Below, one piece after another: positions 7,123 through 9,433 of a stretch of 46,142 bases of DNA; positions within the stretch are counted from its first letter, which is position 1, and the number at the start of each line of letters is the position of its first letter. Origin of the DNA: Candidatus Uhrbacteria bacterium (GTDB taxonomy: Bacteria > Patescibacteriota > Patescibacteriia > UBA9934 > GWF2-40-263); NCBI GenBank assembly GCA_016209325.1, contig JACQWJ010000010.1, forward strand, positions 1 through 46,142. The letters run 5' to 3'. A model generated the notes under the pieces. The model saw nothing but the letters and a program-made list of their open reading frames with translations. It was not told where the DNA came from and searched no databases. Made by a program: the position numbers and the translations under genes.

Positions 7123-8451
7123 TTACGGCGCCATTCGATTCAGAAGGCGCGGAAACGGGATGGTTTCGCGAATGTGGTGCATGCTGGTGATCCAGCGCAC
7201 GGTCCGCTCGAGACCGATGCCGAATCCGCTGTGCGGAACGCTGCCGTACTTGCGGGTGTTCAGGTACCACTCGTACTGGACGAGCGGATATCCGCGGTCG
7301 ACAATTTCCTTGCGAAGGACGTCGTAGCTCTCCTCGCGCTGGCTCCCCCCGATGATCTCGCGGCCCTCCTCGGGCGCGATCAAGTCGGCACAGTGGGCGC
7401 GCAGGACGCCGGCCTCGTCCGTGAACCGCTTCATGTAGAAGGACTTCACCGCGGCCGGGTAGTCCTCGATGAACACGGGGAGCTTGTACTTTTCCCCGAG
7501 GGCAATCTCCTCTTCGGTGGACATGTCGTCTTGCCAGTAGGTGTCGTCGAACGTTTTTACGCCCGTGACCAGTCCTTCTTCCTTCAGGATCCGTTTCGCT
7601 TCCGCATGCGTGAGGCGCACGAACGGCTCGGCGACGAGGCGTTCCAGAATCGCCGTGTCGCGTTCGAGAATCTTGAGTTCCGGACGGCATTGGTCGAGCA
7701 CGTCCTTCACGATGCGTTTTACCATCCGCTCCTGAAGGTCCATGTTCATTTTTTGGTCAAAAAAGGCCATCTCCGCGTCCATCATCCACAGTTCCGACAG
7801 GTGGTGCCGCGTCTTGCTCTTCTCGGCCCGGAACACGGGCCCGAAGTCATAGACCTTGCCGAAGCCCATGATCCCCGCCTCGCTGTAGAGCTGACCGGAC
7901 TGCGACAGGTACGCCGTCTCGCCGTAGTAGTCGACATTAAACAGCTGGGTGGTGTCCTCGCAACTCGTCGGCTGCAGGATGGGCGTGTCGAAGCGGATGA
8001 ATCCCTCCTCGTGGAAGAACTGCTCGATGCTGAAGAAGACACGGTCCCGAATGCGAAGCACCGCCCACGGCGTCTGCGAGCGCAGGTACAGGTCGCGGTT
8101 GTCGAACAAGAACTCCGGACCATGTTCCTTCTTGCCGACGGGATAATCTTCGGACGCGAGATGAATGACGTCAAAGGAGGTCCCTTGAAGCTCGTATCCA
8201 GAAGGGGCGCGGGGCTCCGCTTTGACAAGACCACGAACGATCACGGATGATTCGATGCGCAGACCGTCGAGCTTCTTCCACTCGGCCTCCGGCAGGTCCG
8301 CCGCCGTATACACGGCCTGCACGCGGCCCGTCCCATCGCGAAACTGCAGAAAAAAAATCTTCCCGCTCGAGCGGAAATTATACGCCCATCCTTTGAGTTC
8401 CACCTCCTGGCCGATGAGTCCCGGCAGATCCGATATGTAGGCTGATTGCAT
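7123..8451 (-). CDS. asnS: Asparaginyl-tRNA synthetase
   Basis: VELKGWAYNFRSSGKIFFLQFRDGTG, FRAEKSKTRHHLSELWMMDAEMAF, SGFGIGLERTVRWI. Confidence 0.92.
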   Translation of the reverse strand: MQSAYISDLPGLIGQEVELKGWAYNFRSSGKIFFLQFRDGTGRVQAVYTAADLPEAEWKKLDGLRIESSVIVRGLVKAEPRAPSGYELQGTSFDVIHLASEDYPVGKKEHGPEFLFDNRDLYLRSQTPWAVLRIRDRVFFSIEQFFHEEGFIRFDTPILQPTSCEDTTQLFNVDYYGETAYLSQSGQLYSEAGIMGFGKVYDFGPVFRAEKSKTRHHLSELWMMDAEMAFFDQKMNMDLQERMVKRIVKDVLDQCRPELKILERDTAILERLVAEPFVRLTHAEAKRILKEEGLVTGVKTFDDTYWQDDMSTEEEIALGEKYKLPVFIEDYPAAVKSFYMKRFTDEAGVLRAHCADLIAPEEGREIIGGSQREESYDVLRKEIVDRGYPLVQYEWYLNTRKYGSVPHSGFGIGLERTVRWITSMHHIRETIPFPRLLNRMAP

Positions 8452-8476: not shown

Positions 8477-8505
8477 AGTGTAGCCAAAATGGGACACGGA
8501 CGCAA
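8477..8505 (-). promoter_or_regulatory. Putative sigma70-type promoter of asnS (TTGCGT-17-TACACT)
   Basis: Minus strand: -35 TTGCGT at 8505-8500, -10 TACACT at 8482-8477, 17-bp spacer. Confidence 0.5.
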
Positions 8506-8528
8506 TGCGGAATCCGTGGAAAACCGAA

Positions 8529-8658
8529 CGGGACCTCTGAAAAAGGAATGGATTTTCGTTGAGCGGGCTGTCCAGCCCCATGAGACGTACTAACGGTACG
8601 TTGAATGGGGTGGACGGGTGCCCGCGAGACGAAAAGACGCACTTTTGCAGAGGTCCCG
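8529..8658. ncRNA. Candidate structured RNA: closing stem, internal bubble, long apical stem
   Basis: Perfect 11-bp outer stem CGGGACCTCTG/CAGAGGTCCCG; inner stems GCGGGC/GCCCGC, GTCCA/TGGAC, CCCCAT/ATGGGG, ACGTAC/GTACGT in nested register; lies in a noncoding gap. Confidence 0.55.
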
Positions 8659-8659
8659 C

Positions 8660-9433
8660 TCAGCAGGCGGCGCAGGCTTCGTGGAGGGACAGGGCGGGAA
8701 TGGTCGGAAAATGGGCGGCCATGAGCGATTCGACGGCCTCATGAAACGGCGGCAGAAGGGGGCCCGGCAAATGGAGTCGTAGAAGATCCGAAAAGGGTTC
8801 CTGTATGCCAAAACGGACCAATTTAAGGGCTTCGTTGGGTAATGGGCGGGCCGCGAACCACTCTTGGGGAAAACGCCGCAGGCAGGCGTCGCAGACGATC
8901 CCTCCCTTCAACGGATGCCAGCGGTAGGCGTCCGGCAGCACCGCCGTCCGGCACCCGAGGCAATGCGACAACTCAGGACAGTACCCGAGCAGGTCGAGCA
9001 GCTTCAGGGCAAAGGCTGCCAGCAGGAACGCGGCCCGTTCGGCCCGGCACGGACCGGCGGTCTCGACGAACGCGAGCCATTCGAGTGCTCTCGCGTACAA
9101 CTTCGGATCGGCCTGGCGCTCGCGGGTCCCGAGATCGATGAGGTGCAAACCCTGATGGGCAAGCGTCATAGTCGATAAATTCCCGTAAATGCCGGGAAAC
9201 GTCCGAATCTGCTCGGCGCCCGCCACGGTCTCGTAGGTCCGTCCTTGGACGAGTAGAAGGTGTACCTCCGCGCACAGCTCGAGGTGCGAAGACAGTTTGG
9301 CAAGCGGCTTCGAGGCCCCACGCCCGATGACGTCGATCTTCCCGTGCTCGGGGGTGAGGACGGCGTAGGCGCGGTCCGCCTCCCGCCAGGGACGGCGCGA
9401 CAGCACGAGGCCGGTTGCGTGGTAAAGCGTCGC
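8660..9433 (-). CDS. recO: DNA repair protein RecO
   Basis: YHATGLVLSRRPWREADRAYAVLTPEHGKI; CPELSHCLGC...CDACLRRF zinc motif. Confidence 0.85.
   Translation of the reverse strand, partial: ATLYHATGLVLSRRPWREADRAYAVLTPEHGKIDVIGRGASKPLAKLSSHLELCAEVHLLLVQGRTYETVAGAEQIRTFPGIYGNLSTMTLAHQGLHLIDLGTRERQADPKLYARALEWLAFVETAGPCRAERAAFLLAAFALKLLDLLGYCPELSHCLGCRTAVLPDAYRWHPLKGGIVCDACLRRFPQEWFAARPLPNEALKLVRFGIQEPFSDLLRLHLPGPLLPPFHEAVESLMAAHFPTIPALSLHEACAAC

What the first reader, a model, noticed from the sequence alone, without database searches (positions are those of the whole stretch)
8529..8658. 130-nt compound palindrome between recO and asnS: candidate noncoding RNA with 6S-like outline
A perfect 11-bp closing stem (CGGGACCTCTG/CAGAGGTCCCG) encloses asymmetric A/U-rich bubbles of about 23 nt each and a long apical stem built from four nested helices (GCGGGC, GTCCA, CCCCAT, ACGTAC), about 34 bp in total. 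Each bubble can also form a small AAAAG/CUUUU or GAAAA/UUUUC hairpin, giving a cruciform alternative. A closing stem, open bubble and apical stem is the general layout of 6S RNA. No ORF explains it, and the likely asnS promoter (8477-8505) lies beyond it on the minus strand, so it need not be an asnS leader. This is my best candidate for an undescribed element.
Basis: partly seen in the sequence, partly recalled or inferred. Interest (0 to 1): 0.75.

Follow-up and report, generated by a model that had tools for sequence, protein, structure and literature searches.

The report
Fold-conserving palindromic mobile element (MITE)
The palindrome is one of many copies of a tiny jumping DNA element scattered through Candidatus Uhrbacteria genomes, not a 6S-like RNA gene; unusually, its copies change sequence in matched pairs so that one exact folded shape, including unusual non-standard base pairs, is kept.

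Summary
The palindrome is real (element 8530-8657, 128 bp; fold -86 kcal/mol, z about -9.7). It is not a unique ncRNA gene: the same 766-kb genome holds 10 full-length copies, and a covariance model finds it in 55 of 73 genomes of its order (Candidatus Uhrbacteria), almost nowhere else. It is mobile. Exact 4-bp target duplications flank 26 of 108 copies (1 expected); the recO-asnS gap is empty in a relative; of 30 copies that could be placed in a relative, none is shared. It carries no gene and shares its terminal repeat (GAGACCWCTGCAAAACTC) with IS5-family insertion sequences in two other Uhrbacteria genomes, so it is best filed as a MITE mobilised in trans. No mobiliser was found in the copy-rich genomes.

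What is unusual is the interior. Copies diverge with strong compensatory change (in one genome all 15 basal pairs covary), G-U exceeds A-C on one strand, and a tandem-G.A module switches between A.G and C.A at least 15 times and is never seen as C-G or A.A. So one strand's fold, as RNA or single-stranded DNA, is selected, most likely because mobility depends on it. Rfam and 6S: no match. The mobile-element verdict is strong; the role of the fold is inferred.

The parts
8530..8657 (+). whole palindromic mobile element (128 bp), + strand taken as the folded strand
   Evidence: copy boundaries in 10 full-length copies of the same genome, ends compared by eye and by script, model R1 match 1-129
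8530..8544 (+). left terminal inverted repeat GGGACCTCTGAAAAA (basal stem, 5' arm)
   Evidence: same end on other MITEs and on IS5-family elements
8643..8657 (-). right terminal inverted repeat GGGACCTCTGCAAAA (basal stem, 3' arm)
8547..8552 (+). 5' side of conserved basal internal loop (AAUGGA; GAUGGA in most type-1 copies)
   Evidence: alignment A1; partner 8636-8640 GACGC
8636..8640 (+). 3' side of the basal internal loop (GACGC)
   Evidence: alignment A1
8559..8562 (+). 5' strand of tandem-G.A module 1 (UUGA)
   Evidence: A.G or C.A at the third pair, never C-G or A.A
8626..8629 (+). 3' strand of tandem-G.A module 1 (GAGA)
8582..8585 (+). 5' strand of apical tandem-G.A module 2 (GAGA)
8601..8604 (+). 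3' strand of apical tandem-G.A module 2 (UUGA)
8586..8600 (+). apical hairpin CGUAC/GUACG
8660..8662 (-). recO stop codon, 2 nt from the element (host context)
7123..8451 (-). asnS-like class-II aminoacyl-tRNA synthetase, downstream gene (host context, not part of the element)
   Evidence: PF00152; adjacent to recO with a 6-nt gap in relative G004

Best explanation
[quoted passage not shown] SHOWN: dispersed copies with fixed ends, 4-bp target duplications in the GRGACCTCTG-ended group, empty sites, no sharing of sites between congeners, only intergenic copies, and a fold of the + strand kept by compensatory changes, including non-Watson-Crick ones. INFERRED: (a) the GRGACCTCTG group is moved in trans by an IS5-family DDE transposase that recognises the ends GAGACCWCTGCAAAACTC; (b) the element must fold, as single-stranded DNA or as RNA, at some step of its life cycle, and selection for spread keeps that fold while letting the stem sequences, including the outer 10 bp, drift in pairs. 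At recO-asnS it is an insertion 2 nt after the recO stop codon, with no sign of a host function.
For: Copies in own genome, mostly 85-97% identical over the full length; 55 of 73 genomes of the order, against 3 weak hits among 380 other genomes of the phylum sample; named matches are all Ca. Uhrbacteria apart from one unnamed MAG. Exact 4-bp duplications: 26/108 copies, shuffled mean 0.98, max 5. Clean empty sites, e.g. G060:C111 CCCCCTTAT[element]TTATGACC against CCCCCTTATGACC in G004; recO-TGA-6 nt-asnS in G004 against recO-TGA-2 nt-element-80 nt-asnS here. 0 of 30 placed copies shared between G022/G060 and G004. None of 108 placed copies inside a gene at 81-85% coding; excess within 6 nt of gene 3' ends (18 vs 7.8, 26 vs 10.9). 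Same termini on an IS5-family transposase gene (L242, NF033581 185 bits over cut-off 140; terminal repeat 93 bp outside the start codon) and on both sides of a frameshifted 1.34-kb IS (L240). Fold: 96% of cells paired vs 84.5% shuffled in A1; in one genome 94% vs 73% and 141 double changes vs 38; G-U 43:16, 21:1 and 75:40 over A-C; module A.G 66, C.A 46, C-G 0, A.A 0 of 113, with at least 15 switches on a tree built without those columns.
Against: No transposase with these ends was found in the copy-rich genomes: DDE_Tnp_1 is absent from G000, G004, G022, G060, G052, G069, and no long pair of ends appears in about 96% of G004 apart from a weak 4.6-kb pair that looks like chance. MAG assemblies often lose multicopy IS, but that is not shown here. 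G052/G056 copies rarely show duplications (3 of 60 exact 5-bp in G056) and have many different end sequences, hard to square with one sequence-specific transposase. The window copy itself has no duplication. There are no experimental data.
Confidence: 0.78

Rival explanations
1. REPIN-like element: a single-stranded DNA hairpin moved by a RAYT / IS200-IS605-type Y1 (HUH) transposase, which would explain why one strand's imperfect fold is kept.
For: Size, intergenic position, hairpin and compensatory changes resemble REPINs (PMC3116915). Y1_Tnp proteins occur in 49 of 73 genomes of the order, and in G004 one Y1 gene appears to end next to a copy (C1, about 20.4 kb).
Against: Y1 is absent from copy-rich G056, G045, G014, G026 and G018, and abundant in G013 and G006, which have no copies. 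The GRGACC group has 4-bp target duplications, which ssDNA Y1 transposition does not make (general knowledge). No replication-strand bias (18:16 and 37:42).
Confidence: 0.12
2. Functional RNA element in place: once inserted after a stop codon, the transcript hairpin stabilises or ends the upstream mRNA, and host selection keeps the fold.
For: Excess right after stop codons; strong RNA-like modules; MITEs such as ERIC and Correia elements are known to affect mRNA processing (PMC10969869).
Against: No orientation bias relative to neighbouring genes (same 12: opposite 15, and 23: 27), although only the + strand fold is selected; no U-run after the stem; sites not kept between congeners (0 of 30).
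Confidence: 0.1
3. The covariation is mutational, not selected: intrastrand template switching keeps correcting the arms of a palindrome to match.
For: Long perfect stems unique to single copies, such as L139 and L145; would explain fast paired drift of the ends.
Against: Correction should make Watson-Crick pairs, yet the modules keep G.A with A.G or C.A and never C-G (0 of 113), and G-U exceeds A-C.
Confidence: 0.12
4. Single-locus noncoding RNA gene with a 6S-like plan.
For: Closing stem, internal loops, apical stem; stable fold.
Against: Many dispersed copies, target duplications, empty recO-asnS gap in G004, no Rfam match including 6S.
Confidence: 0.01

Closest known systems
Bacterial MITEs derived from IS elements (reviewed in PMC10969869)
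   Same: short, no ORF, terminal inverted repeats shared with an IS family, target duplications, intergenic, tens of copies, strong hairpin
   Different: the interior is not an obvious IS remnant; its fold is kept across a whole order by compensatory and non-Watson-Crick changes while the terminal repeats drift
REPINs / RAYT system (PMC3116915)
   Same: palindromic mobile unit of similar kind, intergenic, compensatory changes in the hairpin
   Different: 4-bp target duplications, no constant association with a Y1 transposase; here the interior modules are more conserved than the ends in G052/G056
ERIC (127-bp imperfect palindrome of enterobacteria)
   Same: nearly the same length, one imperfect palindrome, intergenic (general knowledge)
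   Different: no sequence relation tested; host group and end sequence differ
Correia elements (Neisseria)
   Same: short repeats with matched terminal repeats that fold in transcripts
   Different: different ends and hosts; no comparable non-Watson-Crick covariation known to me
6S RNA (RF00013)
   Same: only the outline closing stem - bubble - apical stem
   Different: no covariance-model match; dispersed and mobile

Membership tests
MITE | terminal inverted repeats | tested here: met
   15-bp ends GRGACCTYTGNAAAA in inverted pairs
MITE | target-site duplication | tested here: met
   26/108 exact 4 bp vs 0.98 shuffled; the window copy itself lacks one; weak in G052/G056
MITE | no transposase gene of its own, small, multicopy | tested here: met
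   about 125-130 bp; 10 full copies here, tens in relatives
MITE | ends shared with an autonomous IS | tested here: met
   IS5-family loci L242 and L240, one cut by a contig end and one frameshifted; none found in the copy-rich genomes
MITE | mobilisation in trans by that transposase | not testable with these tools
   needs a transposition assay
REPIN | co-occurrence with a RAYT / Y1 transposase | tested here: not met
   Y1 absent from several copy-rich genomes
6S RNA | match to the RF00013 model | tested here: not met
6S RNA | RNA polymerase binding and product RNA synthesis | not testable with these tools
   experiment
known RNA family of any kind | Rfam 15 gathering score | tested here: not met
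   window at gathering; permissive search of the element and of loci with other copies gave no meaningful hit on the element

The most novel reading that the evidence does not exclude
A mobile element whose spread requires a precise folded single strand with RNA-type tandem sheared G.A modules, so that the fold, rather than the end sequence, is its identity, and which has exchanged or drifted through many terminal repeats while keeping that core across an entire order of Patescibacteria.
Probability: 0.35. Interest if true: 0.75.

Novelty: new variant of a known kind. Interest (0 to 1): 0.5.

Why it matters
Patescibacteria have small genomes, yet a short non-coding element occurs here up to about once every 6 kb (60 full copies in about 360 kb of G056). 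Its fold evolves by compensatory and non-Watson-Crick changes, which is rarely documented for a MITE and points to a single-stranded step in its life cycle. Copies with broken and restored stems, and module swaps, make that directly testable in a laboratory host.

Tried and rejected
6S or other Rfam RNA: no match. Phage or plasmid origin: no match by DNA. Autonomous element by exact pairs of ends: one long pair in G012:C4 turned out to be two separate MITEs flanking a gene that looks like ksgA/rsmA by eye. Mobiliser by correlation with copy number: Y1_Tnp, DDE_Tnp_1, RVT_1 and rve are each missing from some copy-rich genomes; G026 lacks all four. Lagging-strand ssDNA transposition: no GC-skew orientation bias. 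Outer stems copied from the target: not seen in the empty sites looked at. Ends of the G052/G056 group on transposase loci there: none found. Literature: no paper in the library combines Uhrbacteria with palindromic repeats or transposases, or Patescibacteria with MITEs; broader searches gave nothing relevant; absence from an open-licence library is not proof.

Full report
OBSERVATION. The palindrome is real. 8520-8670 folds to -86 kcal/mol on the + strand (shuffles -46.5 +/- 4.1) and -79.4 on the - strand. It lies between RecO (PF11967/PF02565) and a class-II D/K/N tRNA synthetase (PF00152), both read on the - strand, 2 nt after the recO stop codon. No Rfam family matches, not even weakly for 6S.

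COPIES. The 130-bp query has 10 full-length copies and 3 cut by contig ends in the same 766-kb assembly, two short derivatives, and copies in 18 of 60 relatives by BLAST. A covariance model built from 37 copies (A1, R1) finds it in 55 of 73 genomes of the order (some listed counts include both strands of one copy) but only weakly in 3 others of a 382-genome sample of the phylum. A named-genome scan with a core pattern gives 24 stretches, all labelled Candidatus Uhrbacteria except those of one unnamed MAG. Phage and plasmid collections: nothing.

MOBILITY. The ends are sharp: G-R-GACC...GGTC-Y-C. Immediately outside, 26 of 108 copies from this family have an exact 4-bp direct repeat, against a shuffled mean of 0.98 and maximum of 5 (first seen). 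The window copy has none. Empty sites: G060:C111 carries CCCCCTTAT[element]TTATGACC where G004 has CCCCCTTATGACC; the G004 recO-asnS gap is 6 nt and empty; further empty sites are. Of the G022/G060 copies whose two flanks could be placed in G004 (30), none is occupied there (G004 is about 96% held, and some placements are loose). So copies are young compared with species divergence in the genus. None of 108 placed copies (G004, G052, G056) lies inside a called gene, although 81-85% of the sequence is coding (gene calls are a simple codon-usage method). Copies lie within 6 nt of a gene 3' end more often than uniform placement in the same gap predicts (18 vs 7.8 in G004; 26 vs 10.9 in G052/G056), not so for 5' ends; target choice and purifying selection cannot be told apart.

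MOBILISER. MITEs with the same ends but unrelated interiors exist (L057, L062, L063, L068, L075, L076), which says that the ends are a unit of recognition in this group. Among DDE_Tnp_1 loci of the order, two have these ends: L242 (G011), where GAGACCTCTGCAAAACTC lies 93 bp outside the start of an IS5-family transposase (NF033581, 185 bits, cut-off 140), the other end being beyond the contig; and L240 (G024, a genome without copies), where ACCACTGCAAAACTC brackets a 1.34-kb element with a frameshifted IS5/IS1182-like transposase. No mobiliser was found in copy-rich genomes: Y1, DDE_Tnp_1, RVT_1 and rve are each missing from several, and G026 lacks all four; no autonomous element was found in G004. 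The IS5 link is therefore an inference.

FOLD. In A1, 96.0% of cells are paired (84.5% shuffled; 38-48% in slid controls) and 27 of 46 pairs have double changes. In a single genome of another family of the order, G052, 17 copies keep 94% pairing (73% shuffled) although all 15 basal pairs change, with 141 double-change cells against 38. The shuffles do not keep relatedness, but the slid controls do, and there pairing falls to 31-46%. A3 was aligned with the model, so its counts lean towards the structure. Outside columns where G-U is the norm, G-U exceeds A-C on the + strand 43:16, 21:1 and 75:40, as expected if the + strand folds; the copies are related, so these are not independent counts.

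NON-WATSON-CRICK MODULE. Both internal loops next to the long stems are tandem G.A modules. At the third pair of module 1, all but one of 113 copies have A.G (66) or C.A (46); C-G and A.A are never seen. On a tree of the G052/G056 copies built without the module columns the two forms switch at least 15 times, so the 5' and 3' halves, some 65 nt apart, change together; recombination between copies could help, but the two halves must still match. Work on sarcin-ricin motifs states that C-G cannot form the sheared (trans Hoogsteen/sugar-edge) pair and disrupts the motif (PMC8450098). That C.A is a good substitute here is my inference. This argues against simple palindrome correction and against dsDNA recognition alone.

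ENDS DRIFT. In G052/G056 the outer 10 bp differ among copies of one genome yet pair to the last base; in G004 a series leads from GAGACC ends to quite different ones. Only 3 of 60 G056 copies have an exact 5-bp duplication, so the insertion mode of that group is less certain. No orientation bias relative to genes or GC skew.

VERDICT. A new MITE family of Ca. Uhrbacteria, inserted at recO-asnS. It is ordinary in kind, unusual in the strength and type of structural selection.

Noticed in passing
L057 1189-1344 and 2373-2502; L062 2809-2969; L063 2697-2857; L068 1220-1375; L075 2637-2808; L076 2403-2568: Further MITE-sized elements with the same ends but unrelated interiors; those in L057 contain a GTGTCATCCCGAGCG...GAGGGATCAC palindrome.
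   Followed up: partly
G056 (L195-L214): 60 full copies in about 360 kb, one per roughly 6 kb, in a genome of about 0.9 Mb.
   Followed up: partly
L054, L055, L056 (G012): Copies with an extra hairpin (CAGCCAAAGGCTGATCAGCCTCTGGCTG) inserted at module 1; L038 and L164/L146 carry inserts elsewhere.
   Followed up: no
L138 7964-8076, L139 812-921, L145 16320-16426 (G004): A shorter core (GGCGAGCCCCACA...GTGGGGTCGGACAG) inside long, nearly perfect stems of unique sequence.
   Followed up: partly
L188 12595-12931 against L209 17437-17776: A 340-bp segment holding a copy is inverted relative to its syntenic surroundings in two congeneric genomes.
   Followed up: no
L030: GTCATTGCGAG...GCAATGAC palindromic repeats, a different dispersed family.
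   Followed up: no
28 genomes of the order: Reverse transcriptase genes (RVT_1, mostly 330-380 aa) in 20 of 28 genomes searched, two of them in the window's genome; not linked to copy number.
   Followed up: partly
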